Virus record (IMG/VR): IMGVR_UViG_3300013006_000002
Span: 1-41,254 of that record
Length of the DNA: 41,254 nucleotides
DNA from: a virus
Direction: 5' to 3' (one strand)
Part shown: positions 4,300 through 40,981 of the stretch, in pieces
Position numbering within the stretch: position 1 is the first letter of the stretch
Layout of the letters: every line of letters begins with the position of its first letter
The notes under the pieces: generated by a model
Databases searched by the model: none
Seen by the model: only the letters and a program-made list of their open reading frames with translations
What the model was told of the DNA's origin: nothing
Position numbers and translations under genes: made by a program

Positions 4300-4737
4300 A
4301 TGGCAGAAGTAGTTTCAGGGGTTGGCAAAAACTCCAGTCGTACTGACAAGAACCTTAGTGCTCGTGTACAGCGTGTAGTTAATGATGCTAAAATTCAGAA
4401 CTCTACTGGTGGTGCGTACAATGAACGCGCTAATTTGACCAGTCTTGCACAGGGTGCTTCAACAGAACAGGCTATGCCTGCAGTTACAGCACCTATGGGT
4501 GATATGACTCCTCGTGGAATCCAGACTACTGGTGCTTTTTCTCCTGGTAATCCAGATACTCCACTTTCAGATGGTGCAAAGTATGGTCCTGGAGCAGATG
4601 ATTCAATCTTGCAGACTCCAGTTGATGCACCAGACCAAGGTTCTTTACTTGCCCGTGCTTTGCTACAGGCAAACCCTAACTCTCGTCAGTTAATGATGAT
4701 GGTAGAAGCATTTAACGAAATGGAATCAAATGGCTGA
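4300..4737 (+). CDS. Hypothetical structural protein, 145 aa
   Basis: Function unknown. The sequence is hydrophilic, rich in Ser, Gly, Pro and Asn, and looks largely disordered until a short helical C-terminus (about 115-142, RALLQANPNSRQLMMMVEAF). It starts two bases after the preceding stop and overlaps the giant virion gene by 8 bases, so the three are translated together. A connector, decoration or assembly role is plausible from position only. Confidence 0.75.
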   Translation: MAEVVSGVGKNSSRTDKNLSARVQRVVNDAKIQNSTGGAYNERANLTSLAQGASTEQAMPAVTAPMGDMTPRGIQTTGAFSPGNPDTPLSDGAKYGPGADDSILQTPVDAPDQGSLLARALLQANPNSRQLMMMVEAFNEMESNG

Positions 4738-7700
4738 TGTCAATGCAGCCATTAAAGGTTATTTAACTCAAACCGCAACGCCTTTGCAACGCATGCTTCA
4801 AATGCAGACTGCATCTTTGCGTGGCGATGAATTAGATAACTTTAACGGTATCCTTAAAAAGTATCCAGGCATGAGCAATGACCTTGTTATGTCTATGGTA
4901 CGACAGGGACTTAATGCTGATACACCTGGTCTTGGCAAGATTACTGCTATTGATGGTATTGCTGCACTCAAAAATGATGCATTTAAACTTGATAAAATTA
5001 AAAGTACAGTAAAACCTAACCGTGGTTTACTAGGTAGTGTCCAAAGTGTTGCACAACACTGGGGCTATGAGCCAATTAAGGGCTTCACGCGTACAGCATT
5101 TGCCGTACTTCGTTCTCCTTACGACCTTGCTACCACTATTGGACGCGATATAACAGCAATTGCTCGTGGTGAAAAGGGTGCTGGAGCGCAAACACTTAAA
5201 GATATTGCACAAGGTATTGGCGGAGAGAGTACAACTCTTGGTCAAATGATTCGTTCTGGTAATGCTGGAACAGGTTCTGGCTTTTTTGTATCACCTGAAA
5301 GTAAGGTTGGCAAAGCACAAGCCAAGGAAATGGCTCAGTATGGTCTTGTTAATGGCAAGTCATTTACTATTGGACGCGGTATTTTTAATGGCGTAGGTAT
5401 GAATCCTAACAGCAACGCCTATAATATTCTCTCAGGAATTGTTGATGCCACACTTAACGTGGCTGCAGACCCATCAATCTACTTTGGTCCTGGTGCTGTA
5501 GGTAAGATTATTACCCAAGGTAAGAAGGCTACAAGCATTATCAAGGAAGTTACACCTTATACAAAGTCTTACTTTGATGAAATGGCTAAAGCATCAATTG
5601 ATGACCTTGAAAAGACAGGTCAGATTACACGTAACAAGATTGATAAGAAGATTTCTAGTCCTTTTAAACGTATTGCTAACCAATATAAGTCTAAAGAGCA
5701 AGAAATTATTGCTGCAGAGCAGCAGATTGTTAATCGTCAGGTTGGTACTGCTCAAAAACTACTTAACTTTGAATCAAACAAGTGGATGCGCTGGGCTAAT
5801 GAGCCTGCAGATAGTGCTGTAAAGCAGACACTTTCTAATAAAAATATTGCTGAGTGGTTTGTAGGAAATCCAAAAACACAGACTGGTGAACTTACCCAGG
5901 CTATGGACTTACTTTCTGCTGATATGAAGAACACTGGTGGATTCTTTGATGGTCACATCATTCTTGATGAAATACCACAGTATGGCAAGATTAGTGCTGG
6001 AGCACATGGACTTGATGAGTACATTGTAACTGCTAATGATGCTAAGAAACTAAAACTTCTTGATTTGGCTGATGACTTTAAGAATGCTGATGATGCTACA
6101 CGCGCTGCTGAGGCAGTACGCCGTTCTAAGTTAGCAGATGCACTCGATAAGTTGGGCAAGAACGCTACAGACCCAGATTTTAAGATTTATAATGAACTTG
6201 CTACCAATCTTCGTGATGGTGCTGCAAACCTCGAGGGTTTTATTGGCTCATTGTTTAGCATGGGTGACTTACTTGTGGCAGCAAAGCCACTAGGTACTCT
6301 TATTGGCGAAGTTGCAGACTACAAGAACTTTGCCGTAATGAGCAAGATTACAACCACCATTGAAAAGATTTGGAAGCCAGACGGCTTCACTAACGTCCGT
6401 TCTATCTACGGCAAAGAAGGCGGAGTAGTCATCACTCGTGGTGAGCGTATCGCTGCTACTCGTGCTGAGGTTGGCAACGCTGCAGCAGAGTTTGCAGACC
6501 CAACTAATCTTGGTCCTAATGTAATGAAGTTGCTTGATTCAATTCAAGATACTAAGGCTTCAATTGCGGCACGTGAACAAGAACTCAACTCTCTTAGCAA
6601 TGAAGCACTTGATTTGAAAGATAAAGAAATCTGGTTCCAGCAACTTCGTGAGAAGGCTAATGGAGACCCAGATATGCTTCGTGAACTTATTCAAGACCCA
6701 GCAAATGCTGGTATCAGACCTTTACTTAAACTTGAAGCAGAACTAGCAGACAATGCGGTTCTAAAAGAATCTATTCAATCACAAGTTGGTATCACAGACG
6801 GTTTTATGGGTCGTGTTCTTGATACTCCTGGTGTCGAAGACGGACTTAGATTTATGCTTGGGCGTCAATTCCAGCCTGTTGCTGAGTTGCTTGCTAAAGA
6901 AACAGATGTAGTCAAAGTTCGTCGTCTATTTAACCGCAAGTTAAGTGATGATATGGTTAAAGAGATTACTGCTGCAGAAACAGTTGATGATGTATTTAAG
7001 GTATTTGCTAACCAGTTAATTCCTGGTGGAGATGTTATTAAAATCAAACAGTCTCTATCTGCTGGATTAAAGATTGCTACCAATCCTGCTGCTCGCATGA
7101 TTCCTGGGGTTAATCTTCGTGCTGTAAAGTTTGCAGAAGATGTTAATAAGGCTTTTGGTCGTTTCTATATCCGTTCAACTGCAGTTCCTCTTAATGACTT
7201 AAATCAGGTTAACAATGTAACTGAAGACTGGATGAGTTCTATTGGACTCACATCTAAGTTGGGCAGAATCATTCAACCTGCAATTCAAGAGAAGATTATT
7301 GCTGATACTCAGCGGGCTATCTTTAAGGCTACCACAAATGCTGAACGTGCTGCTGCAGTATCAAACGGCATTGGCAACCTTTTGGACGAAGTTGGCAGAG
7401 GCATTGGTCTAACAGCAAAAGATATTGACAGTCTTAAAGCAAGCACTAAATTAAGTGGTTCAGAGCAGGCAGAGTTTACATCTTACTCACTTGGCAACGT
7501 TGTCGGTAATAAGGGTGGGGCAAAGATTGTTACAGCAGAAAAAGCAATTGACCTTCCTGATGGTATTCTCGAGTCTCAGTTAGTTAACGATGTTATTAAC
7601 TTTCCTGATTCTAGAGGACTTAATGAGGCTATTACCAAGTTAAGAGTTAATCAAGGAATCTTTGGTGCTGCAAAGTCTTCTAAACTATTCCTTGAAGAAG

Positions 7701-10588
7701 TAGGCGACCTCTGGCGTACAGCACAGTTAGTATTCCGTTTTGCTTACATTACAAGAAACATTGCAGAAATGCAAATGCGTCAGTTCTTCTCTGGACACGA
7801 CAGCCTATTTAATAATCCTGTTGGATTCATATCTATGATGGTTGCTGACCCAGAAGGAAACGCTATTCAACAGATGTTGGCAAAGCGTTCTAAACTAGGC
7901 GTTAATGCTCTGGGTGATTCAATGAAGTCAGTAGATGCAGAAATAGAATTTTCAGAATCTCTTATTGCTCGTCAGTCTTTAATGCGCGGAACATCACGTT
8001 CAGATTACAGTGCAGCAGAGCGCAAAAAGGGTATTCTCTTTAAGTCATACAATGACATCACATCAGAACACCCAGACTTCCTACAGGGATTAGCCTGGAC
8101 GATGAACAGTTTCTCATCAGATAAATTCATGCCAGATGTAATTAGAATTCTTGAAAGACAGAATCCTGCACTACAGGCAGAGTATGTAGATAACCTAATT
8201 GCTACATTTGATGAGCCAGGAAATAAACTTAAGGAATTTGCATCAGCCATTTATGAAAAAAATACTGGCATGCGAGAGGTTCTACTTAAGAGCCCATCCA
8301 AGGAAATTGGTCCTGGTGTTGTTGCTGACAACATGAACAGAGACAACATCATTACATTTCTGTTTGATGTAAGCCAGCCAGATACATATGCTGGTCAACT
8401 CAACCTGCTTGGCGGAACAGGTGCTCAGCGCAACCTAGTCATGAATCTTATTCGTGATGGCAAGACTCAAGTAACAACAGCCAGTGGCAAGGTAATTACT
8501 ATTCAAACACCTTACCGTCAAAAGGGTCTTACAACAGAAGGCGTACTTGCTGCAGAGAAGATATTTCAGAAGCAGGTTGCTAACATATTTAAAGCGGAAG
8601 AACTTCAAGGTTCTGTAGTTAAGAATGTAACTGAAAAGTACATTACACAGGGTGCAGTTAAGACAGGTAAGAAGTGGGCAGACCAGTTCTTTAACCTTGC
8701 TGCTAGAGGTGAATCTAAGTTTAACTTCGGTCCTGAATTTGATGCATCATACTGGGACTTTATTGCAGGATATGCAGACATGCTAAGCACTGATGACTTG
8801 ATTAAGTTACGTGCTAATGCAAACAAGGCATTTGCCCCTACATCTAGAGGCGGAAGAAACATAATTGGTCGTGTGCCAGCACCACTTCGTACTATTAACA
8901 ATACTCTTAAAAAGCGTCAGGCTAATCCAGATTATGTACACCAAGGTGGAGCATCACTTAGGACTCTTGATTCAATTGCTGGAACACAGGCTGCTGACTA
9001 TGTTAAAGACTTGTTCTATGATGCTGCAAAGCAAAAGCAATGGGCTAATGCTGCACGTTTGGTAGCACCATTCGCACAGGCTCACTACAACACCATTGGA
9101 AAATGGTCTGAACTATTTGCTGGAAACCCACTTCCTTTGTACAAGGCTGGTAAAGCATTCGATGCTTTGACCAAAGAAGGTTCAAACGTTATTTACGATG
9201 CTACTGGCATGACATATGATGACAACCAAGGTTTCTTGTACAAAGACGAAGGTCAGAATCAAATCAAATTTAAAACACCTCTTGCTGGCAATATCCTTGG
9301 TGCTTTTGCTGGTGCTATGGCTGGACAAGGGCTTTCTGCTGGAAAAGGTTTACAGATTACCTCACCTGTTGAATCTCTTAACCTTGCATTTGGTTCTCTT
9401 AACCCAGTAGTCCCAGGGCTAGGACCTGCAATGGTTGCTGCGTATCAATTAACTGGACGTGCTAGCGCATTTAGTCCAGCAGATGATTTCTTACGCGATA
9501 TGCTTACACCATTTGGTCAACCAAAAACATTCCAAGATATCGTCTTGCCTGCTTGGTTCAAGAAAACATCTGCAGCAATTCTTGGTGACGATGCATCCAC
9601 CCAACGCGGTGTTAAAGACTGGGCTTCATACTTAGCATCTACTGGTGACTATGGAGATAATCCATTTGCATCAGATGCTACACGCACTAAGTTATTTAAC
9701 GATGCAGAACGTCTTTCAAAGAGCATAAATGGTTGGGGCGCTATCTTCCAATCTATCACACCTGCAACACCTATTCAAGAAGTTCTTGCTAATGTAAAAA
9801 ACCCTAACAACAAGATGAACTTCATGACAATGGCTATGTTGTACAAGGAATGGGATAACACTAACAAGAAGCATCCTGGAGACCGCAACGCAGCGGTTGT
9901 TGAGTTTGCCGATAAGTTTGGCATCAACAACATCCTTATTGGAGTAAGCGGAAGCACACCTGGAACATCAGGTTCTGCAGATGCATGGACATTCTTGAAC
10001 AACAATCCTGATGTGGCAGATAAGTACGCAACTGCTACAGGAGATATAGTTCCATACTTCTTCCCTGGTGGGGAATATTCTCTTAAGTATTACAACTGGC
10101 AGAAGCGTAGTGGTGCTCGTCGTGGGCTATCTACATCAGAAATTGCACAAGAAGCAGAGGGCATGGTCTATGCCATGCTTAAGAGTCAGATTGCTAATAA
10201 CCAGATTGCTGGCGGATATACAGACTACTGGTACAACGAGCAAATTGCTATTCTTGATAAGCAGTTTGGTGCTCGTCCTGCTGACACTATTGTAACAGGT
10301 ATCAACGACCAAAAGATAGCAAATATTGGACTTGCCCTGCAAGACCCTGCTTTCCAAAAGTCACCTGTCTATAAAGAAACAGCAGAGTTCTATGCAAAGT
10401 TTGATGAACTCAAAAAGGTATTAAACAGACAGAAGGCTTCTAACTATGCAGAACTCTCTGCTGGTGGAATTGCCATATTGATGCGTAATGAACTCGTTAC
10501 ACTAGGAGAAAAATTAATGACACAGAATCCTGAATTCTCCCGCATGTACTACGGGGTATTTGCTGGAATATTGAAGGAGGCTAAGTAA
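4730..10588 (+). CDS. Giant virion protein, putative internal/ejection protein
   Basis: At 1952 residues this is by far the largest gene, about 14% of the genome. It sits between portal and capsid genes, where short-tailed phages often keep proteins packaged in the head and injected with the DNA. The sequence is mostly alanine/lysine-rich helix. Candidate membrane-active glycine/alanine segments lie near residues 1515-1545 (AGNILGAFAGAMAGQG) and shortly after. I looked for polymerase, protease, transglycosylase and peptidase motifs and found none convincing. A tape measure is less likely because no tail-tube or chaperone genes accompany it. Codon use matches its neighbours. It overlaps both neighbours. 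Confidence 0.65.
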   Translation: MADVNAAIKGYLTQTATPLQRMLQMQTASLRGDELDNFNGILKKYPGMSNDLVMSMVRQGLNADTPGLGKITAIDGIAALKNDAFKLDKIKSTVKPNRGLLGSVQSVAQHWGYEPIKGFTRTAFAVLRSPYDLATTIGRDITAIARGEKGAGAQTLKDIAQGIGGESTTLGQMIRSGNAGTGSGFFVSPESKVGKAQAKEMAQYGLVNGKSFTIGRGIFNGVGMNPNSNAYNILSGIVDATLNVAADPSIYFGPGAVGKIITQGKKATSIIKEVTPYTKSYFDEMAKASIDDLEKTGQITRNKIDKKISSPFKRIANQYKSKEQEIIAAEQQIVNRQVGTAQKLLNFESNKWMRWANEPADSAVKQTLSNKNIAEWFVGNPKTQTGELTQAMDLLSADMKNTGGFFDGHIILDEIPQYGKISAGAHGLDEYIVTANDAKKLKLLDLADDFKNADDATRAAEAVRRSKLADALDKLGKNATDPDFKIYNELATNLRDGAANLEGFIGSLFSMGDLLVAAKPLGTLIGEVADYKNFAVMSKITTTIEKIWKPDGFTNVRSIYGKEGGVVITRGERIAATRAEVGNAAAEFADPTNLGPNVMKLLDSIQDTKASIAAREQELNSLSNEALDLKDKEIWFQQLREKANGDPDMLRELIQDPANAGIRPLLKLEAELADNAVLKESIQSQVGITDGFMGRVLDTPGVEDGLRFMLGRQFQPVAELLAKETDVVKVRRLFNRKLSDDMVKEITAAETVDDVFKVFANQLIPGGDVIKIKQSLSAGLKIATNPAARMIPGVNLRAVKFAEDVNKAFGRFYIRSTAVPLNDLNQVNNVTEDWMSSIGLTSKLGRIIQPAIQEKIIADTQRAIFKATTNAERAAAVSNGIGNLLDEVGRGIGLTAKDIDSLKASTKLSGSEQAEFTSYSLGNVVGNKGGAKIVTAEKAIDLPDGILESQLVNDVINFPDSRGLNEAITKLRVNQGIFGAAKSSKLFLEEVGDLWRTAQLVFRFAYITRNIAEMQMRQFFSGHDSLFNNPVGFISMMVADPEGNAIQQMLAKRSKLGVNALGDSMKSVDAEIEFSESLIARQSLMRGTSRSDYSAAERKKGILFKSYNDITSEHPDFLQGLAWTMNSFSSDKFMPDVIRILERQNPALQAEYVDNLIATFDEPGNKLKEFASAIYEKNTGMREVLLKSPSKEIGPGVVADNMNRDNIITFLFDVSQPDTYAGQLNLLGGTGAQRNLVMNLIRDGKTQVTTASGKVITIQTPYRQKGLTTEGVLAAEKIFQKQVANIFKAEELQGSVVKNVTEKYITQGAVKTGKKWADQFFNLAARGESKFNFGPEFDASYWDFIAGYADMLSTDDLIKLRANANKAFAPTSRGGRNIIGRVPAPLRTINNTLKKRQANPDYVHQGGASLRTLDSIAGTQAADYVKDLFYDAAKQKQWANAARLVAPFAQAHYNTIGKWSELFAGNPLPLYKAGKAFDALTKEGSNVIYDATGMTYDDNQGFLYKDEGQNQIKFKTPLAGNILGAFAGAMAGQGLSAGKGLQITSPVESLNLAFGSLNPVVPGLGPAMVAAYQLTGRASAFSPADDFLRDMLTPFGQPKTFQDIVLPAWFKKTSAAILGDDASTQRGVKDWASYLASTGDYGDNPFASDATRTKLFNDAERLSKSINGWGAIFQSITPATPIQEVLANVKNPNNKMNFMTMAMLYKEWDNTNKKHPGDRNAAVVEFADKFGINNILIGVSGSTPGTSGSADAWTFLNNNPDVADKYATATGDIVPYFFPGGEYSLKYYNWQKRSGARRGLSTSEIAQEAEGMVYAMLKSQIANNQIAGGYTDYWYNEQIAILDKQFGARPADTIVTGINDQKIANIGLALQDPAFQKSPVYKETAEFYAKFDELKKVLNRQKASNYAELSAGGIAILMRNELVTLGEKLMTQNPEFSRMYYGVFAGILKEAK

Positions 10589-30764: not shown

Positions 30765-31199
30765 ATGAAACTGACAACATACGCTTGGATAATGGCTGCT
30801 GTAGTCTTTGCGGGAACTCTACCCCACGCTGTGGGTGCGATGTTCCTAGAAGGACAAATGCGGGCAATCGACGCAACAGCAACATGCAAGAATCTAAGTT
30901 ACGTCTCTCTATCAGAAATGAAGAGACTAGCAAAGCGAGTCGCTAGGCACAAGGTGCTTACGACATACGAGAGCAAGCATGAGTGGAAAGCACTCTTTGC
31001 ATTGTGGGATAAAGAATCTCGCTGGGATTACACAGCAGACAACCCACGCTCAACTGCCTATGGTATCCCTCAACTACTAAACATGGATGAGAAGACTCCT
31101 ATGGTACGTCAGATTGATTTAGGATTGAAATATATCCAACACCGTTACGGAACTCCAACGAAGGCGTTAGCCTTCCATGACCGTCACGGCTGGTACTAA
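30765..31199 (+). CDS. Secreted lytic-transglycosylase-like protein
   Basis: A likely peptidoglycan glycan-strand hydrolase. Residues 1-25 look like a signal peptide or anchor (WIMAAVVFAGTLPHAVGA). The SLT-type core has the catalytic Glu84 in WDKESRWDY, then NPRSTAYGIPQLL and LGLKYIQHRYGTPTKALAFH, the usual motif series. At 144 residues it is a minimal domain. It lies in the replication module, 3 kb from the lysis genes, so early or middle expression and a role other than final lysis (wall remodelling, entry, superinfection exclusion) are possible. Confidence 0.82.
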   Translation: MKLTTYAWIMAAVVFAGTLPHAVGAMFLEGQMRAIDATATCKNLSYVSLSEMKRLAKRVARHKVLTTYESKHEWKALFALWDKESRWDYTADNPRSTAYGIPQLLNMDEKTPMVRQIDLGLKYIQHRYGTPTKALAFHDRHGWY

Positions 31200-35295: not shown

Positions 35296-35310
35296 GTTAG
35301 GATTCCTAAC
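35296..35310. repeat. 15-bp palindrome, copy 1
   Basis: GTTAGGATTCCTAAC, two bases beyond the stop of the last leftward gene and two bases before the terminator stem. Member of a nine-copy family with 7-bp arms around a single A/T centre. Confidence 0.9.
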
Positions 35311-35312
35311 GG

Positions 35313-35453
35313 CTAGTAGTCTTGAACTATATTCGTAACACGCAATATATTCTGAGACTCTAACCTCAACAGGATATAGTCCATCATGCCCTCCACAGAT
35401 AATGGGTCTATACCTGAATCTAGTTCTTCGACACTGATGCTAAAGGTCGTCAT
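35313..35453 (-). CDS. Microprotein, 46 aa, end of leftward operon
   Basis: Acidic N-terminal part (TFSISVEELDSGIDPLS) and a helical C-terminal part (GMMDYILLRLESQNILRV). The ATG overlaps the end of the upstream gene by 14 bases; the stop lies two bases from palindrome copy 1. Function unknown. Coding status rests on operon spacing. Confidence 0.6.
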   Translation of the reverse strand: MTTFSISVEELDSGIDPLSVEGMMDYILLRLESQNILRVTNIVQDY

Positions 35454-35577
35454 ACATCTCCTCTAGCGTATCGTATACAGACTCGGAGCATGTGCAATCA
35501 TCGTCTGATTGCTCACAGTCGTCACAGTCTTGATTCTTTCCTAGTGCTATGTCATCTTCTAGGCGTGGTTCACCCAT
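35440..35577 (-). CDS. Acidic Cys-rich microprotein, 45 aa
   Basis: Contains CDDCEQSDDDCTC and an acidic tail (EEMYDDL). The start at 35577 follows GAAGGAC; a longer in-frame version would run back into the upstream gene. Four Cys in a strongly acidic chain could bind a metal or mimic nucleic acid. Function unknown. Confidence 0.65.
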   Translation of the reverse strand: MGEPRLEDDIALGKNQDCDDCEQSDDDCTCSESVYDTLEEMYDDL

Positions 35578-35713
35578 TGAAGTGTCCTTCCGATAGTAGC
35601 CCTTCAAAGAAGTCGATGACTTCATTTATCTTTGCTACTTCTTCAGGAGTTGCTTCGATACCAACAAGATTGCTAATGAACTTCTGCAAATCTTTATCTG
35701 TGTATCCTAGCAT
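35570..35713 (-). CDS. Helical microprotein, 47 aa
   Basis: DKDLQKFISNLVGIEATPEE and VAKINEVIDFFEGLLSEG suggest two amphipathic helices. The start overlaps the preceding stop (TAATG) and the stop overlaps the next start by 8 bases. Its TPEE motif also appears in the upstream gene (VATPEEIAEY), hinting at a shared fold. Unknown function. Confidence 0.65.
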   Translation of the reverse strand: MLGYTDKDLQKFISNLVGIEATPEEVAKINEVIDFFEGLLSEGHFNG

Positions 35714-35904
35714 TAGGCGACCTCAACCCATTCTTGAGTCACGCGTAGGAGATTATCATAATCCCCACTCATGGCTTCCTTCTGATATTCTGCAATCTCC
35801 TCAGGAGTTGCTACATCACGAAGTGCTCGATTGACTTGCGCTAAGATATTGAAGGCGTTGCCGTCATTACCGATTAGTTGTACTGTTACATTATATTTTG
35901 GCAT
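35713..35904 (-). CDS. Small conserved-type phage protein, 63 aa
   Basis: YNVTVQLIGNDGNAFNILAQ then VNRALRDVATPEEIAEYQ and SGDYDNLLRVTQEWV. I remember this VTVQLxGxDGNAF...SGDYDxLL pattern from many phage genomes. A beta-hairpin plus helices is likely; function unknown. Palindrome copy 2 lies 22 bases upstream of its ATG. Confidence 0.75.
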   Translation of the reverse strand: MPKYNVTVQLIGNDGNAFNILAQVNRALRDVATPEEIAEYQKEAMSGDYDNLLRVTQEWVEVA

Positions 35905-35925
35905 TTATTTTCTTTCTGTTCGGGT

Positions 35926-35940
35926 GTTAGGATTCCTAAC
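35926..35940. repeat. 15-bp palindrome, copy 2
   Basis: GTTAGGATTCCTAAC. Its end includes the TAG stop codon of the upstream 40-residue gene, and it lies 22 bp before the next start codon. Confidence 0.9.
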
Positions 35941-36058
35941 GGATTGCTAGGAATATGATTATACTAACTGCGCCTACAGTTGCAAGCGAAGTCCAAAGCA
36001 TGAGCATCAGTTGCTCTGATACACTTCCAACGAAGTGGTCATAGTCATCTTGGCTCAT
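35936..36058 (-). CDS. Single-TM microprotein, 40 aa
   Basis: A hydrophilic start (SQDDYDHFVGSVSEQ) then one membrane segment (MLMLWTSLATVGAVSIIIFL). ATG overlaps the WhiB stop (TAATG); its stop codon is part of palindrome copy 2. Could be an envelope-acting early protein. Function unknown. Confidence 0.65.
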   Translation of the reverse strand: MSQDDYDHFVGSVSEQLMLMLWTSLATVGAVSIIIFLAIR

Positions 36059-36375
36059 TATGCAACCCCGTTATAGGAATAAGTTAACTCCCATGATTTG
36101 GTTGTTATTCGTAGTGCTACTTGCATATCGTGCCTCTCGTGTCTATCTAAACCGCCCCATATCCCAGTCAATCCGTGATACTTGAGAGCGTAGGTTCTGC
36201 ACTCTACCAGTAACGGGCATGACTTACAAATAGTGCGAGCAGTGTTAGCCTCGTATGTATGAGACCAGTCTATGCGACCTGCCTTCTCTATTGGAAACCA
36301 CCACTCAGGGTCGTACTGTTCGTTAGAGCAGTCTCCACATGTAGAGAAGTTGGGATTATCGTTGCTGATTCTCAT
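36058..36375 (-). CDS. WhiB-family Fe-S transcription regulator
   Basis: 105 residues. An aromatic WWFP motif, cysteines 13 or 16, 50, 53 and 59 (TICKSCPLLVECRTYAL) and the GIWGGL turn are the hallmarks of WhiB-like proteins, which hold a 4Fe-4S cluster and contact the host's principal sigma factor. WhiB proteins are restricted to actinobacteria and their phages, which fixes the host group. Preceded by GGAGG. It probably redirects host or phage transcription. Confidence 0.9.
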   Translation of the reverse strand: MRISNDNPNFSTCGDCSNEQYDPEWWFPIEKAGRIDWSHTYEANTARTICKSCPLLVECRTYALKYHGLTGIWGGLDRHERHDMQVALRITTKSWELTYSYNGVA

Positions 36376-36527
36376 ACGCCTAGACCTCCGCTTGGGGCGT
36401 TAGGAACGCTAACGCCACCAAACTTAGCCCAAGCACACGAATTGCAATAGAAGTCTGCGTTGTCATGCTCAAGTACAAGGATTGCACCTAAGCATTTACA
36501 ACATAACGCTTCTTTATATTTATTCAT
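36372..36527 (-). CDS. Zinc-ribbon microprotein, 51 aa
   Basis: CCKC (residues 9-12) and CNSC (28-31) form a zinc ribbon, with a Gly/Pro-rich tail (GGVSVPNAPSGGLGV). The tail is encoded by palindrome copy 3, in the same frame as copy 6 in the amidoligase. The stop overlaps the WhiB start (ATGA) and the start overlaps the upstream gene by 8 bases. Confidence 0.7.
   Translation of the reverse strand: MNKYKEALCCKCLGAILVLEHDNADFYCNSCAWAKFGGVSVPNAPSGGLGV
36399..36413. repeat. 15-bp palindrome, copy 3 (degenerate)
   Basis: GTTAGGAACGCTAAC keeps the outer arms but differs at two inner positions. It lies inside the zinc-ribbon gene and 24 bp upstream of the WhiB start. Confidence 0.7.
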
Positions 36528-36708
36528 TATCTTCTTTCTCTAGCGGAAGTTGACCCGCTAGTTCATAATACTCCGTGGCTCGAAGCATTAGTTGTGCGTG
36601 TTTGGTTGTATCTCCCTGCAGTAATGCTGTCTGAGCATCGTGCAGGAATAGTTCGGCTCTCTTGCCGTAGTAGTAGGGCGTTGGTGGTACTGGCTTATGC
36701 TTCTTCAT
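36520..36708 (-). CDS. Helical small protein, 62 aa
   Basis: YYYGKRAELFLHDAQTALLQ and AQLMLRATEYYELAGQLP look like a two-helix TPR-like hairpin. The ATG overlaps the upstream gene by 14 bases. Function unknown; possibly a protein-binding partner within the operon. Confidence 0.7.
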   Translation of the reverse strand: MKKHKPVPPTPYYYGKRAELFLHDAQTALLQGDTTKHAQLMLRATEYYELAGQLPLEKEDNE

Positions 36709-36844
36709 GACTCTCCGATTCTATCACTGCCATGACAGCATTGACAACTTTCTCGAGTGTAGTTTCTCGCATATAGATTGGGTCTTGCTCGATAGAGTAA
36801 GTGAGACCAGCATTGACGATTGCTCGTGCTATATCCTCGCGCAT
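36695..36844 (-). CDS. Helical microprotein, 49 aa
   Basis: REDIARAIVNAGLTYSIEQD then TTLEKVVNAVMAVIESESH. The start overlaps the amidotransferase stop (TGATG) and the end overlaps the next gene. The tight coupling to the amidotransferase suggests a shared process. No domain recognised. Confidence 0.65.
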   Translation of the reverse strand: MREDIARAIVNAGLTYSIEQDPIYMRETTLEKVVNAVMAVIESESHEEA

Positions 36845-37689
36845 CACCAGTCCCACCCACCTTGTCTAGCCCACCATTTAGCATCGTCTTTGCTACCCTT
36901 GTAGCATAGGTCATCTGCCATGTAAGTGTCACATTGGTAGCATGAGCCACACTGTGGGCAATAGTCATCACCTAGACCACTAGCCCATAGTTGCTCCTCA
37001 TCTACCACGAGTTCGCATACCTTGCACTCATAGAATACGACTTCTTCATCGTGCTTGGTTAGGAATCCTAACGGTTGCTTTGAGTACCATTTATTATCTC
37101 CGCTGTAGGTGTAAGGCTTAGGCAGATAGCATGTGTCATTAGACCACCACACATTGGTGTCATCACGCCAGCCCTTCTCCTCATGGAATAGGTAGCACTG
37201 GAACCTTGCATCAGGATGCACTGTAAGTACGCAGACCTTAGACCCAGTAGTGAAGTCCTCGATGAGATTCTGTACCTGTGGATTATCTAGTGAGGCTACG
37301 CCACCGATAGCAGGTAGCAAGTCCTCTGCAAAGATACGCGTATCGCTACGAGTATCACCATTAGGTTCGATGATAGGCAGGATACCGTTATGTGCTAGGT
37401 AAGTGCGCTCATCTTTGCCAACTTTGAACGGGTGACAGTTGTCAACTGTGGTTGAGCCATGAGTGGCGAATCTAGCATGCCATAGGGCATATCCTTCGGG
37501 ATACTTGCCACGCATCTCGATGAAGCGGTTGATAGATGTATCGGCGTTCATAGTACGCTCGACATGGATACGCTTCTCACTAGGGATAACGATAGCAAAC
37601 CCGAATCCGTGTGGATTGTTGAGAGCAGAGTTTTCTAGCATCTCACGAGACGGAATTACATTGGGTGGAACTACGCATAACATACACAT
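36844..37689 (-). CDS. Class II glutamine amidotransferase with zinc ribbon
   Basis: 281 residues. The N-terminal Ntn-type domain begins MCMLCVV, with Cys2 as the likely nucleophile after Met removal; NNPHGFGFAIV (24-34), HARFATHGST...CHPF (71-87) and LAHNGI (98-103) are the GAT-II motifs that release ammonia from glutamine. The C-terminus (from about 220) has a zinc-binding-type cluster: Cys222, 225, 244, 247, 250, 253 and 262. The acceptor is unknown; with the adjacent amidoligase it should supply or transfer ammonia for amide bond formation. Palindrome copy 4 is inside the gene and copy 5 lies 17 bp upstream. Confidence 0.82.
   Translation of the reverse strand: MCMLCVVPPNVIPSREMLENSALNNPHGFGFAIVIPSEKRIHVERTMNADTSINRFIEMRGKYPEGYALWHARFATHGSTTVDNCHPFKVGKDERTYLAHNGILPIIEPNGDTRSDTRIFAEDLLPAIGGVASLDNPQVQNLIEDFTTGSKVCVLTVHPDARFQCYLFHEEKGWRDDTNVWWSNDTCYLPKPYTYSGDNKWYSKQPLGFLTKHDEEVVFYECKVCELVVDEEQLWASGLGDDYCPQCGSCYQCDTYMADDLCYKGSKDDAKWWARQGGWDW
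37058..37072. repeat. 15-bp palindrome, copy 4 (intragenic)
   Basis: GTTAGGAATCCTAAC inside the amidotransferase gene, where the minus strand codes for PLGFLT. The reading frame differs from copies 3 and 6. Confidence 0.92.
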
Positions 37690-37706
37690 TTGTGATTCTC
37701 TTTTCT

Positions 37707-37721
37707 GTTAGGAATCCTAAC
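37707..37721. repeat. 15-bp palindrome, copy 5
   Basis: GTTAGGAATCCTAAC in the 34-base gap between the amidoligase stop and the amidotransferase start, just before the purine-rich ribosome-binding region of the latter. Confidence 0.92.
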
Positions 37722-37723
37722 GA

Positions 37724-39217
37724 TTAGTTATCTGTCTCATCGGGGTTGTTATCATTGGCGAACGATTCGCTCATGATTGTTACTAGGTTCGGATATAGTT
37801 CCGCATTGGTAGCGACATAACCTGTGAACTTGAGCCATGACAGTGCATGATTCTTGCTCGTTACTTTGATGTCTCGTGTGTATTCCACAGAGGCATGGAC
37901 GAACTCGATAGCGGATAGCACTCGCTCCTTGCGTAGTGAACCCTTGAACACACGAATCTCAATCGTGTCATCGTTCTCGGTGTTGATAGCAGAGAACCTA
38001 CCATTTTCTTGGTAGCCACTCTTAACCTTGCGAACGAGTTGCCCCTTATCTCCGAAACTTGCATAGCGGTCACTTGAACGACCCGATATGCGCTCCACTT
38101 GGCGTTGATTATCGTAGATAAGTTTCATGAACCTAAGTTCGTGAGACTGGCGCTGGAGAATCAACTGTGAACGGTGTCTGTTAGGTGTTCGATAATCCCA
38201 CGGGTCGCCATTACCGAAAGCGTTACGCGATACATGGACATGGATGCCACAAGTGTTGGTGTTCCATGACCGATAGCCTTGAGCCTTGAGTTTATCTAAC
38301 ACGCCCCAGTTGAAGTCAGTGTGATACTTCTCAAGCGTGTGTGGGTGAGTGACAATCTCGAAGCCGTCATTGAGAGAGCCGTCCTCTTTCAGATAGGCGT
38401 GACCGCCCAATGTATTCTGCACCAGCATAGCCCCGTCATAACGACCATTACCACGAGCCTCGACTTCTAACTCAAAGCCGAAGTGATACTTGCCCTCTCC
38501 AAAGAAGAAGGGGCTAGGTCGGTAGTTGTAATTATGGATGAGCGACTCGTCATCGTCATTGTCACCACTGTCACAGTAGTGGTCGTCACCTTCCCAGCGT
38601 TGCTCGCTACAGTCATCACAGTGGTAGACATTAGCCTCGATACATCCTTCACAGTATCGGGTTGAGTTCCACCACCCTGAATTGTCATCGTGGGTATGGG
38701 ATAGGCAAAACTCGCACTCGAAGTAATCATTTTCATCGTGCTCCTCCCAAAACTTCTTGGCACATGATTCACAATGGTTGTTCCCTTCGATGATTGTATT
38801 GCTGTTGAATTGGTCGTGAGAGATTGTGTAAATACTGCGCCACTGTCTCTGCTGGTTATGTGCATACCGCTTGTCGCATTGGTCGCATGATTTATTACTG
38901 CAACTGAAGTGTGCCACGATTTCAGTTGTGGCATCGTCTAGATATGCTGTGGTGAGTGACCAGTTGAGCGAATCCTCAAGTGCTGGCAGTTCACATACAT
39001 CACATCTTAGAATGTCCTCATTTAGCACAGGATAGGTCTCGCCGTTAGGAATCCTAACGCCTTCCAACTCACCGTATCTCTCGTGGCACTTGAGACATAA
39101 CTCGCGCTTGGCATATGACTCCACGAAAATGTGGTTAGGGCGATAGCATCCGTCACATAGACGCATGTCTATATACCCAAACCCTGTAGGGCTGTCTAGT
39201 TCTGATGTATCAGGCAT
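37724..39217 (-). CDS. Amidoligase with N-terminal zinc-ribbon array
   Basis: 497 residues. The C-terminal half (about 245-430) has amidoligase (COOH-NH2 ligase, glutamine-synthetase-like) motifs: FGFELEVEARG, EDGSLNDGFEIVTHPHT, GIHVHVSR and TIEIRVFKGS. Such enzymes use ATP to join a carboxylate to an amine in peptides or proteins. The first 215 residues carry eight C-x2-C pairs (21/24, 41/44, 72/75, 111/114, 149/152, 168/171, 189/192, 200/203), probably a row of zinc ribbons that bind the substrate. The CDVCELPALEDSL segment echoes CKVCELVVDEEQL of the amidotransferase. Start at 39217 follows GGAGG; an in-frame ATG at 39238 was rejected. Confidence 0.85.
   Translation of the reverse strand: MPDTSELDSPTGFGYIDMRLCDGCYRPNHIFVESYAKRELCLKCHERYGELEGVRIPNGETYPVLNEDILRCDVCELPALEDSLNWSLTTAYLDDATTEIVAHFSCSNKSCDQCDKRYAHNQQRQWRSIYTISHDQFNSNTIIEGNNHCESCAKKFWEEHDENDYFECEFCLSHTHDDNSGWWNSTRYCEGCIEANVYHCDDCSEQRWEGDDHYCDSGDNDDDESLIHNYNYRPSPFFFGEGKYHFGFELEVEARGNGRYDGAMLVQNTLGGHAYLKEDGSLNDGFEIVTHPHTLEKYHTDFNWGVLDKLKAQGYRSWNTNTCGIHVHVSRNAFGNGDPWDYRTPNRHRSQLILQRQSHELRFMKLIYDNQRQVERISGRSSDRYASFGDKGQLVRKVKSGYQENGRFSAINTENDDTIEIRVFKGSLRKERVLSAIEFVHASVEYTRDIKVTSKNHALSWLKFTGYVATNAELYPNLVTIMSESFANDNNPDETDN
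39044..39058. repeat. 15-bp palindrome, copy 6 (intragenic)
   Basis: GTTAGGAATCCTAAC inside the amidoligase gene; minus strand codes for VRIPN at residues 54-58, between zinc-ribbon segments. Confidence 0.92.
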
Positions 39218-39315
39218 TAGACTACCTCCATTCCGCAATCAGGGCAGAATTTATCGCCCCAACATATCTCGCAGGTGGAAATTGGCCAAGTATTTATAGA
39301 AATTTTCTTTTCCAT
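39217..39315 (-). CDS. Zinc-ribbon microprotein, 32 aa
   Basis: CEICWGDKFCPDCGMEVV contains four Cys in two pairs, a minimal zinc ribbon. Its stop shares one base with the amidoligase start (TAATG) and its own end provides the amidoligase ribosome binding site. It may be a detached zinc ribbon of the same system. Confidence 0.7.
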   Translation of the reverse strand: MEKKISINTWPISTCEICWGDKFCPDCGMEVV

Positions 39316-39468
39316 TTATGCTACCTTCTTTTCTCCTGTGCAGAAGCCACAGGCTAGTTGGTGTCCATCTCCAAGGTTATGGAGACGGGTGGCATCGGGT
39401 ACGCCACATGAGCGAAAGAGCAGACAGGCGAACTCGTCGTCTGTAAGACCTGCTTGGTTATTAGACAT
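39316..39468 (-). CDS. Microprotein, 50 aa
   Basis: SNNQAGLTDDEFACLLFRSC then LACGFCTGEKK. Four Cys, two of them close together near the end. Start preceded by GGTGAG; the stop abuts the next ATG. Function unknown. Confidence 0.65.
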   Translation of the reverse strand: MSNNQAGLTDDEFACLLFRSCGVPDATRLHNLGDGHQLACGFCTGEKKVA

Positions 39469-39474
39469 GGCTAC

Positions 39475-39696
39475 TCACCATGTCCTTGATAGTGCTTGAC
39501 GGACAGTTGTGCGGTTGGCTACATACTCCGAACCCCACACTTGGAAATCTAGGATGTCCTCAAAATCGAGGACTTGCTCATTACTGAGCATCCCAGCGTT
39601 ATCGTAGCCGAGGCGCAATCTCTCTAGACAGTAAGAGATGTGCATGGCTTGGTTGCGTGTGAGAGTGACTTTCTTCTCTTTACGGAATATAGACAT
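39475..39696 (-). CDS. Small protein, 73 aa
   Basis: Basic start (SIFRKEKKVTLTRNQ) then helices (AMHISYCLERLRLGYDN, QVLDFEDILDFQ). I start it at 39696, just after the upstream stop; a longer frame is unlikely. Function unknown. Confidence 0.65.
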   Translation of the reverse strand: MSIFRKEKKVTLTRNQAMHISYCLERLRLGYDNAGMLSNEQVLDFEDILDFQVWGSEYVANRTTVRQALSRTW

Positions 39697-39698
39697 GA

Positions 39699-39881
39699 TT
39701 ACTTCTGCTCCATGTCGGCGATGATGGATTCGTACTCTTTGGTGATTTCCCAACGCTGGGTGCGTAGTCGGTCAATCTTGCGCTGGAGTTTAGCGTTGGC
39801 TAGGGCGGTGGTGATTACTAGGGTTACAGACACTACTAGCGCAATCATTACTGCTAGCATGTCGCCTGTGGTTAGATACAT
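39699..39881 (-). CDS. Membrane-anchored coiled-coil protein, 60 aa
   Basis: One membrane helix (about 7-27, DMLAVMIALVVSVTLVITTA) followed by a charged coiled-coil-like helix (LQRKIDRLRTQRWEITKEYE). First gene of the leftward operon. AAAGG lies nine bases before the ATG at 39881. The topology could suit an early envelope protein (for example exclusion of other phages), which is speculation. Confidence 0.7.
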   Translation of the reverse strand: MYLTTGDMLAVMIALVVSVTLVITTALANAKLQRKIDRLRTQRWEITKEYESIIADMEQK

Positions 39882-39903
39882 GAGTGTTACCTTTCGAGTG
39901 AGT

Positions 39904-39918
39904 GTTAGGAATCCTAAC
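39904..39918. repeat. 15-bp palindrome, copy 7
   Basis: GTTAGGAATCCTAAC in the leader of the leftward operon, 23 bp before the first start codon and downstream of the -10. Confidence 0.92.
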
Positions 39919-39950
39919 GGTGCGAAGGCATGGTTGCCCCCACTCCCACC

Positions 39951-39986
39951 AGTATAGGTGATTAGGGTCACAGAACCAAATCTCCC
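39951..39986 (-). promoter_or_regulatory. Leftward operon promoter (A)
   Basis: Minus strand: TTGGTT (39979-39974), 17-bp spacer, TATACT (39956-39951). The -35 is embedded in GGGAGATTTGGTTCT (39986-39972), a 15-mer shared with promoter B with one mismatch. The leader of about 60 bases contains palindrome copy 7. Confidence 0.7.
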
Positions 39987-39993
39987 TAGTCCA

Positions 39994-40032
39994 CGCCGAT
40001 GACTGGATTTATCGAATAACGCCGATGGCTGG
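39994..40032. repeat. 13-bp direct repeats upstream of promoter A
   Basis: CGCCGATGACTGG and CGCCGATGGCTGG, 26 bp apart, lie just upstream of the promoter A -35. A related core, GCCGATGGC, occurs at 41092-41100 upstream of promoter B within the palindrome CTGCCGATGGCAG (41090-41102). Activator binding sites are a plausible reading. Confidence 0.6.
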
Positions 40033-40042
40033 CTTCCTGCCC

Positions 40043-40062
40043 CCGACACAAACCAACACAAA
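40043..40062. repeat. Tandem CCRACACAAA element
   Basis: CCGACACAAA (40043-40052) is followed directly by CCAACACAAA (40053-40062). Single copies of CCAACACAAA are at 40125-40134 and 41020-41029, and two more lie in rightward genes at 29497 and 34992. Iteron-like or regulatory. Confidence 0.65.
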
Positions 40063-40084
40063 TTTTTTCTTCGCTTGGTCGGTG

Positions 40085-40099
40085 GTTAGGAATCCTAAC
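40085..40099. repeat. 15-bp palindrome, copy 8
   Basis: GTTAGGAATCCTAAC in the intergenic control region, between two CCAACACAAA elements and about 100 bp upstream of the promoter A -35. Confidence 0.92.
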
Positions 40100-40124
40100 T
40101 CGCAACGCCATGTCTGCTGTACCT

Positions 40125-40134
40125 CCAACACAAA
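40125..40134. repeat. CCAACACAAA element
   Basis: Exact copy in the intergenic region between terminator and palindrome copy 8. Confidence 0.6.
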
Positions 40135-40187
40135 CTTTTCCGCGCCCCAATTTTGATTGGGAATTCTGCCCCGATTTTGGGCATGAG

Positions 40188-40217
40188 AAAACCCCCCACC
40201 GCCGAAGCGATAGGGGG
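40188..40217 (-). terminator. Terminator with UUCG tetraloop
   Basis: On the minus strand an 11-bp stem (CCCCCTATCGC with GCGGTGGGGGG, G-U pairs allowed) closes a TTCG loop and is followed by TTTT. It lies 15 bases after the stop of the 40233-40871 gene and isolates that gene from the operon downstream. Confidence 0.9.
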
Positions 40218-40232
40218 CTAACTCGTGGCGCG

Positions 40233-40871
40233 TTATGCGCTTACAGGGTGCGCCTTCATAGACTTAGCGAGTTCACCCTTTGAGAAGGTGACGGCTTGAG
40301 CCAAGCACTTAGCAAACGCTTCCGCTTGAGCAATCGCCTCAGGAGAATCGAGAGTGACATCTTCCAATTCTTGCCACAATCCGAAAGCCATGCTCACGAT
40401 AGCGTTCGCAGAAATCTCGCCCTCGATAGCGACCTTCTTTGACTTCTTGCCCTTGCCCTCAGGCTTGCCAGCCTTCTTGGTTGCTTCTGCCTCGCGTGTA
40501 GCGCTTGAGAACTCGCCCCATGAAGTCACACGAGCCACGAGAGCGAGAGCGCCCTCCTTCTTGAGTGTGCGTTGAGCGATAGCGACTTCCTTCATGAAGT
40601 CAGCAACCGCGACAGAATCGGCGCCCTTGAGTGAGAGGCAGGTATTCGCCAATCCAAAATAGTTTGCATAAGCAGGACGGATAGCAGAGATAGCGCCAGC
40701 CTTTGACGCTTCCTTGAGAGTTGCTTCCAAGTCGCGTGCTGGTGACTTGTGAGCCTTAACGATGAACGCACGAATCGCAGACTCGTTACCCTTCACGATG
40801 GCTTGGTAATCCTTCACGAGTGAAGCGATGACCTTGCCAGTTACCTTAGGTGTTGATGTTGTAGATGTCAT
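40233..40871 (-). CDS. Unknown protein, 212 aa, own transcription unit
   Basis: Not recognised. It is rich in Ala, Lys, Glu and Ser and almost wholly helical (ESAIRAFIVKAHKSPARDLE, SVAVADFMKEVAIAQRTLKK), with a basic linker at about 132-147 (KKAGKPEGKGKKSKK) splitting two helical parts. It has its own promoter and a strong terminator, so it is probably expressed strongly and early. The sense-strand codons are well biased. A host-takeover protein, DNA-binding protein or regulator of the palindrome family are all possible. No cysteine-rich or catalytic motif is seen. Confidence 0.75.
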   Translation of the reverse strand: MTSTTSTPKVTGKVIASLVKDYQAIVKGNESAIRAFIVKAHKSPARDLEATLKEASKAGAISAIRPAYANYFGLANTCLSLKGADSVAVADFMKEVAIAQRTLKKEGALALVARVTSWGEFSSATREAEATKKAGKPEGKGKKSKKVAIEGEISANAIVSMAFGLWQELEDVTLDSPEAIAQAEAFAKCLAQAVTFSKGELAKSMKAHPVSA

Positions 40872-40918
40872 TTTCTTTGCTTTCTATCGCCCAGCCACTT
40901 GCCGAGTTCGATAGGAGT

Positions 40919-40954
40919 ATTATTGCACAGAACCCCGAAAGAATCAAATCTCCC
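40919..40954 (-). promoter_or_regulatory. Leftward promoter (B)
   Basis: Minus strand: TTGATT (40947-40942), 17-bp spacer, AATAAT (40924-40919). The -35 lies in GGGAGATTTGATTCT (40954-40940), matching promoter A at 14 of 15 positions. Palindrome copy 9 lies about 20 bp further upstream. Confidence 0.7.
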
Positions 40955-40966
40955 CAAAGCGAGCCT

Positions 40967-40981
40967 GTTAGGAATCCTAAC
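40967..40981. repeat. 15-bp palindrome, copy 9
   Basis: GTTAGGAATCCTAAC, 20 bp upstream of the promoter B -35, the only copy placed just upstream of a -35. Confidence 0.92.

What the first reader, a model, noticed from the sequence alone, without database searches (positions are those of the whole stretch)
36844..39315. Amidoligase, GAT-II amidotransferase and zinc-ribbon cassette of unknown substrate
The operon pairs an ATP-dependent amide-bond-forming enzyme with a glutamine-dependent amidotransferase, both carrying unusual zinc-ribbon extensions (eight C-x2-C pairs in one) with a similar CxVCELxxxE segment. A free 32-residue zinc ribbon is coupled to the amidoligase start. Amidoligase/GAT-II neighbourhoods in phages have been noted by comparative genomics and predicted to modify peptides, but I know of no defined substrate. 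Here it could tag host or phage proteins, alter cell-wall peptides, or decorate the virion. The zinc ribbons may select the target.
Basis: partly seen in the sequence, partly recalled or inferred. Interest (0 to 1): 0.8.

Follow-up and report, generated by a model that had tools for sequence, protein, structure and literature searches.

The report
Phage zinc-ribbon amide-forming enzyme pair
A freshwater phage carries two neighbouring, probably active enzymes that together should make new amide bonds on an unknown target during infection; the pairing is a known phage theme, but the zinc-binding extensions and a phage-specific DNA switch repeated through the same gene block look new.

Summary
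Window 36844-37689(-) encodes a class-II glutamine amidotransferase (GAT); 37724-39217(-) a glutamine-synthetase-fold amidoligase behind eight C-x2-C pairs. Catalytic residues are conserved across about 50 relatives. The genes adjoin in 62/62 testable amidoligase-anchored and 78/82 GAT-anchored loci, and in unrelated Mycobacterium, Methylophilales and other phages. Predicted folds match GlmS/EgtC (Z about 14) and YbdK/glutamate-cysteine ligase/glutamine synthetase (Z 10-12).

The idea is not new: such pairs are described in phiEco32-, LUZ24- and Marvin-type phages. This is a two-gene, zinc-ribbon variant of a known kind. The shared CxVCELxxxE motif and the free 32-residue ribbon are not conserved. 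The target remains unknown.

An unexpected feature surfaced. The block holds eight exact copies of one 15-bp palindrome, including one 18 bp before the GAT start and one inside each enzyme gene. Relatives carry the same array with other words (at least 11 in 55 loci). An unclassified 212-residue protein heading the block tracks the word, not the phage phylogeny (0 of 2000 permutations reach the observed value). It is probably the cognate regulator.

The parts
36844..37689 (-). Class-II glutamine amidotransferase (Ntn hydrolase), 281 aa: glutaminase domain about 1-190, C-terminal zinc ribbon (C222,C225,C244,C247,C250,C253,C262), low-confidence tail ending GGWDW
   Evidence: Pfam GATase_4; phrog_25883 5.6e-33; Cys2, R73, H77, N101, G102, D116 invariant in 51 sequences; AlphaFold pLDDT 77.6; GlmS Z 14.3, EgtC Z 14.0; W279 invariant in 48 sequences
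37724..39217 (-). Zinc-ribbon amidoligase, 497 aa from ATG 39217: N-terminal eight C-x2-C pairs (about 21-215), C-terminal glutamine-synthetase-fold ligase domain about 240-497
   Evidence: Pfam Amidoligase_2; phrog_16683 5.8e-40; E249,E251,D279,E287,H326,H328,S330,R380 invariant, E420,R422 at least 90%; pLDDT 83; YbdK Z 12.3, plant GCL 11.2, GS about 10, Dop 9.5
39217..39315 (-). 32-aa free zinc ribbon ORF, stop overlaps amidoligase ATG; not conserved in relatives
   Evidence: no tblastn hit in loci; absent upstream in closest relative L005
36520..36708 (-). 62-aa conserved operon protein (PPTPYYYGKRA motif) downstream of GAT
   Evidence: 65 of 86 loci
36372..36527 (-). 51-aa conserved zinc-ribbon microprotein
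   Evidence: 64 of 86 loci
36058..36375 (-). WhiB-family protein, same gene block
   Evidence: Pfam Whib 5.9e-14; 62 of 86 loci
39699..39881 (-). 60-aa membrane microprotein (one hydrophobic segment by eye) conserved upstream of amidoligase
   Evidence: 57 of 86 loci
40233..40871 (-). p213: 212-aa unclassified protein heading the block; candidate palindrome-binding regulator
   Evidence: no phage-record match, no confident Pfam, PHROG or PDB match; sequence tracks the palindrome word, partial rank r 0.59, 0/2000 permutations
35296..35310 (.). palindrome GTTAGGAATCCTAAC, convergent intergenic region
35926..35940 (.). palindrome, 22 bp upstream of the start of ORF 35713-35904(-)
36399..36413 (.). 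degenerate palindrome (2 mismatches), 24 bp upstream of whiB start
37058..37072 (.). palindrome inside the GAT gene
37707..37721 (.). palindrome in the amidoligase-GAT gap, 18 bp before the GAT start; the position is kept in relatives
39044..39058 (.). palindrome inside the amidoligase gene
39904..39918 (.). palindrome, 23 bp upstream of the membrane microprotein start
40085..40099 (.). palindrome in the gap between p213 and the membrane microprotein
40967..40981 (.). palindrome, 96 bp upstream of the p213 start

Best explanation
The two genes encode one amide-forming module in a reverse-strand phage gene block. The GAT, after loss of Met1, uses Cys2 to hydrolyse glutamine and release ammonia. 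The amidoligase uses ATP to activate a carboxylate as an acyl phosphate in its glutamine-synthetase-type site, and the ammonia attacks it, leaving an amide. The zinc ribbons (eight pairs on the ligase, one ribbon on the GAT) and the GAT's tryptophan tail most likely dock the two enzymes together and/or hold the target. The likeliest class of target is a peptide carboxylate of the host, with envelope peptides first and a host protein second, changed during infection to the advantage of the resident phage, for example superinfection exclusion. Shown by computation: families, predicted folds, intact catalytic residues, co-conservation, shared zinc ribbons. Inferred: ammonia transfer, complex formation, target class and biological role.
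For: Catalytic residues of both enzymes invariant or nearly so. GAT aligns with the GlmS glutaminase by sequence (E 4.1e-7) and predicted fold (Z 14.3). Amidoligase matches YbdK, GCL and GS by predicted fold; its GxHxHxS and ExR motifs resemble those I recall from glutamine synthetase. Genes adjacent in 62/62 and 78/82 testable loci, and in Marvin, MEP402, the Manatee Spring podovirus and a faecal phage. Zinc ribbons on both partners also in Marvin. Only one hit in 84,980 prokaryote genomes, a 3.3-kb MAG contig carrying both genes, with a stringent pattern scan. Literature predicts peptide or cell-wall modification for related phage cassettes (PMC5498523, PMC10580990).
Against: No substrate is demonstrated for any phage member in what I could read. 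GAT-II enzymes can act as stand-alone hydrolases (EgtC matches as well, Z 14.0). LUZ24-type cassettes carry extra enzymes (COOH-NH2 ligase, ATP-grasp, cyclotransferase) that I did not find among the window proteins I scanned. Zinc arrays suggest binding to a macromolecule and are not obviously needed for envelope precursors. No complex was modelled.
Confidence: 0.5

Rival explanations
1. Gamma-glutamyl cycle pair: the ligase attaches an amino acid such as glutamate to an amine, and the GAT-II protein is an EgtC-like Ntn hydrolase that trims or removes it; no ammonia transfer.
For: Ligase fold is nearest to YbdK and glutamate-cysteine ligase; GAT matches EgtC (Z 14.0) as well as GlmS and its best Pfam model is GATase_4; other phage cassettes include gamma-glutamyl cyclotransferase.
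Against: NCBIfam and sequence-profile matches are to GlmS-type glutaminases rather than EgtC. No cyclotransferase found among the window proteins scanned.
Confidence: 0.25
2. Protein-tagging module: the zinc-ribbon array recruits a specific host or phage protein and the ligase modifies its side chains, by analogy with Pup ligase/Dop, which share the ligase fold.
For: Dop matches by predicted fold (Z 9.5); eight conserved zinc-binding pairs with weak LIM-like resemblance (E 0.03); conserved small operon proteins.
Against: No tag peptide identified; LIM resemblance is insignificant; the Dop match is no better than many metabolic enzymes.
Confidence: 0.15
3. The pair is a remnant or a non-catalytic regulator.
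For: No activity shown.
Against: Strict conservation of active-site residues and adjacency across relatives only 40-90% identical.
Confidence: 0.05

Closest known systems
Marvin-type mycobacteriophage pair (gp105/gp106)
   Same: Adjacent amidoligase and GAT in the same order, zinc ribbons on both, about 32% identity
   Different: 5 rather than 8 C-x2-C pairs in the ligase; none of the repeated palindromes; otherwise different genome
LUZ24/phiEco32-type 'peptidoglycan modification' cassette (UFV-P2, tf, PSA-HP1)
   Same: Amidoligase_2 and GAT-II gene neighbours in a phage early region
   Different: Adds COOH-NH2 ligase, ATP-grasp and AIG2-type cyclotransferase; UFV-P2 amidoligase has no C-x2-C pair and is not matched by the profile
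Methylophilales phages MEP401/402 pair
   Same: Adjacent amidoligase-GAT pair, reported as auxiliary genes (PMC10580990)
   Different: Two C-x2-C pairs in the ligase and none in the GAT (MEP402)
Cluster A mycobacteriophage repressor/stoperators (for the palindrome network)
   Same: Many copies of one short site, with motif diversity between related phages and specificity set by a phage repressor (PMC6550527)
   Different: Stoperators are asymmetric and spread over the genome; these sites are palindromic, sit in one block, and the candidate protein has no similarity to a known family
Cluster K start-associated sequences (SAS/ESAS)
   Same: Short repeats just upstream of start codons (PMC3203893)
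   Different: SAS is a 13-bp asymmetric sequence conserved across cluster K; here the word differs between phages and is the same within one

Membership tests
Amidoligase_2 (PF12224) | Match to the Pfam model above its gathering score | tested here: met
   24.6 bits vs cut-off 22, E 2.7e-5
Amidoligase_2 (PF12224) | Glutamine-synthetase-like fold with conserved acidic, His and Arg active-site residues | tested here: met
   Predicted fold: YbdK Z 12.3, rmsd 4.2, 220 aligned; GS about Z 10; conserved residues
Amidoligase_2 (PF12224) | ATP-dependent amide-bond formation | not testable with these tools
   needs enzymology
Class-II glutamine amidotransferase | N-terminal Cys nucleophile after Met1, plus Arg, His, Asn-Gly, Asp of the glutamine site | tested here: met
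   C2, R73, H77, N101-G102, D116 invariant; alignment to GlmS 1xff
Class-II glutamine amidotransferase | Ntn-hydrolase glutaminase fold | tested here: met
   GlmS Z 14.3, rmsd 3.8, 175 aligned
LUZ24/phiEco32-type modification cassette | Amidoligase and GAT-II as gene neighbours | tested here: met
LUZ24/phiEco32-type modification cassette | Additional ATP-grasp, COOH-NH2 ligase and gamma-glutamyl cyclotransferase genes | tested here: not met
   none among the block proteins and early-region proteins scanned with Pfam; not every window ORF was scanned; the cassette is therefore not filed as this type
EgtA/EgtC-like gamma-glutamyl pair | Ntn hydrolase acting on gamma-glutamyl amides | tested here: inconclusive
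   EgtC and GlmS tie by predicted fold
Phage repressor/stoperator system (p213 and palindromes) | Repeated site whose sequence co-varies with one phage protein | tested here: met
Phage repressor/stoperator system (p213 and palindromes) | Sequence-specific DNA binding that represses transcription | not testable with these tools
   needs binding and reporter assays

The most novel reading that the evidence does not exclude
The amide-forming pair is one payload of a gene block governed by an undescribed regulatory system: an unclassified protein family (p213) that binds a palindrome repeated near gene starts and within genes of the block, with related phages having switched together, protein and all sites, to different words (at least 11 found), as heteroimmune repressors do.
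Probability: 0.6. Interest if true: 0.75.

Novelty: new variant of a known kind. Interest (0 to 1): 0.55.

Why it matters
Phage amidoligase/GAT pairs have been noted since 2009, but none of the papers I could read reports a substrate. This family reduces the problem to two proteins, gives a zinc-ribbon handle for finding the target, and sits in phages related to cultivated phages of 'Ca. Nanopelagicales', among the commonest freshwater bacteria. The palindrome/p213 system, if confirmed, would be a new diversified phage control circuit whose specificity code can be read from natural pairs of protein and site.

Tried and rejected
CxVCELxxxE as a shared functional motif: rejected, present in both proteins only in the window and two near-identical relatives. 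The 32-aa ribbon as an essential part: rejected, not conserved. Anti-phage defence system: no PADLOC match worth noting (best E 0.3). Host-derived metabolic gene: the genome scan found one 3.3-kb contig in a MAG carrying both genes, probably phage; that scan used two strict patterns and does not exclude distant homologues. A natural amidoligase-GAT fusion: one apparent case (L047/L116) lacks the catalytic Cys2 and is probably a deletion or assembly error. One GAT-anchored locus (L153) has no amidoligase by the profile, and a C. difficile phage has an amidoligase without a neighbouring GAT. Fold of p213: not predicted; sequence profiles gave no confident match. Palindromes as mere RNA hairpins: less likely because copies within a genome share one word and it tracks p213, but not excluded.

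Full report
WHAT IS THERE. The window is a 41,254-base virus record. On the minus strand, 36844-37689 encodes a 281-aa class-II glutamine amidotransferase and 37724-39217 a 497-aa amidoligase. The eight C-x2-C pairs are real.

ARE THE ENZYMES INTACT? Yes, as far as sequence can show. In 51 GAT sequences, Cys2, Arg73, His77, Asn101-Gly102 and Asp116 are invariant, and the profile aligns with the E. coli GlmS glutaminase. In 53 amidoligases, E249, E251, D279, E287, H326, H328, S330 and R380 are invariant and E420/R422 nearly so; the GxHxHxS and ExR motifs resemble those I recall from glutamine synthetase (own knowledge). Predicted structures (mean pLDDT 77.6 and 83.0) match GlmS (Z 14.3, rmsd 3.8, 175 aligned) and EgtC (Z 14.0) for the GAT, and YbdK (Z 12.3, rmsd 4.2, 220 aligned), glutamate-cysteine ligase (11.2), glutamine synthetases (about 10) and Dop (9.5) for the ligase domain 240-497. 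The zinc-ribbon regions were barely tested by these structure searches.

CO-CONSERVATION. From 63 IMG/VR loci found with the amidoligase, all 62 that reach far enough downstream have the GAT directly after it. In the reverse direction, 78 of 82 usable GAT-anchored loci have the amidoligase adjacent, two more have it on the same stretch but not adjacent, one is an apparent fusion and one (L153) lacks it. The two sets overlap heavily, so they are not independent samples. Independent support comes from Mycobacterium phage Marvin, Methylophilales phage MEP402, a Manatee Spring podovirus and a human faecal phage contig, where the pair is also adjacent. A C. difficile phage has an amidoligase without a neighbouring GAT. 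A scan of 84,980 prokaryote genomes with GAT patterns found one 3.3-kb contig in a metagenome-assembled genome, which carries both genes.

THE ZINC RIBBONS. Eight C-x2-C pairs occur in 44 of 61 amidoligases. Marvin has ribbons on both proteins; MEP402 and the Manatee phage have 2 and 7 pairs in the ligase and none in the GAT; the LUZ24-like UFV-P2 ligase has none. So the ribbon on the ligase is widespread in this subfamily, and the ribbon on the GAT is so far an actinophage trait. The GAT also ends in a low-confidence tail with an invariant Trp279 and usually a terminal aromatic residue, a candidate docking peptide. The CxVCELxxxE likeness and the 32-aa ribbon are not conserved. Conserved small neighbours are a 62-aa protein, a 51-aa zinc ribbon, WhiB and a 60-aa membrane protein.

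HOST. The terminase and major capsid protein are most similar (58% and 47%) to records OX376640/OX376641. OX376640 is titled LanE43-AprE7, which I identify with phage E7 isolated on 'Ca. Planktophila' LanE-43 (PMC10202952). With WhiB and 45% G+C, a freshwater actinobacterial host is likely but inferred. E7 itself matched neither the GAT nor the amidoligase profile, so the cassette is not universal in this wider group.

MECHANISM. The best-supported chemistry is glutamine-fed amidation of a carboxylate: the GAT makes ammonia and the ligase makes the amide with ATP. A gamma-glutamyl ligase/hydrolase pair is the main rival, because EgtC and GlmS tie in the fold comparison. Target and benefit are inferred. 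Published predictions for related cassettes favour peptidoglycan modification and superinfection exclusion (PMC5498523; PMC10580990; PMC11318856), without demonstration in what I could read. The founding 2009 paper (Iyer et al.) and the Marvin paper were not available.

THE PALINDROME NETWORK. The 15-mer GTTAGGAATCCTAAC occurs in eight exact copies (allowing either central base) at 35296-40981 and nowhere else in the window, plus a degenerate ninth copy before whiB. One lies 18 bp before the GAT start and one inside each enzyme gene. Of 87 non-redundant loci, 55 carry at least four copies of one palindrome in the same region and 54 of these have a copy just upstream of the GAT start. Fourteen arm sequences were listed; three are a known word read one base earlier, so at least 11 words are distinct. 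Shuffled sequences never gave more than two copies. Within a genome the copies share one word; between related genomes the word differs, with both arms changed.

THE LIKELY REGULATOR. The 212-aa protein at 40233-40871 (p213), first gene of the block, has no match in the phage records and no confident Pfam, PHROG or PDB match. Among ten neighbouring proteins, only its distance follows the word distance (partial rank correlation 0.57 given GAT distance; the others between -0.08 and 0.11). Permutation of words never reached the observed value in 2000 trials (maximum 0.26 against 0.59), and the nearest p213 relative has the same word in 47 of 49 phages, against 31 of 49 for the GAT; two of the words have a single member, so 47 is the most possible. 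Phages L018 and L033 share the window's word and have 40-45% identical p213, whereas phages with GAT at least 85% identical but a different word have almost unrelated p213 (median normalised score 0.09). Genes lying between p213 and the GAT site do not track the word, which argues against simple linkage. The permutations do not correct fully for shared ancestry. I infer that p213 recognises the palindrome; binding and the direction of regulation are untested. The closest analogy is the repressor/stoperator system of cluster A mycobacteriophages (PMC6550527), which uses asymmetric sites.

VERDICT. The cassette is real and probably active, a new zinc-ribbon, two-gene variant of a known phage theme with unknown target. 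The control network around it is the more surprising part.

Noticed in passing
window 35296-40981 (sites at 35296, 35926, 36399, 37058, 37707, 39044, 39904, 40085, 40967): Phage-specific repeated 15-bp palindrome with conserved positions but different sequence words in related phages.
   Followed up: yes
window 40233-40871 (-): Unclassified 212-aa protein whose sequence tracks the palindrome word; candidate cognate DNA-binding regulator.
   Followed up: partly
window 36844-36870 (GAT C-terminus): Low-confidence GAT tail with invariant Trp279 and usually a terminal aromatic residue (GGWGW-like), a possible docking motif.
   Followed up: partly
L054, L056, L057, L060: In one distant clade a gene resembling the window's SLT-like protein (30765-31199) lies directly upstream of the amidoligase, a weak hint of a cell-wall link.
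   Followed up: no
window 39699-39881 (-): Conserved 60-aa membrane microprotein upstream of the amidoligase in most relatives.
   Followed up: no
window 4730-10588 (+): Very large 1952-aa ORF in the structural region, upstream of the capsid gene; not examined.
   Followed up: no
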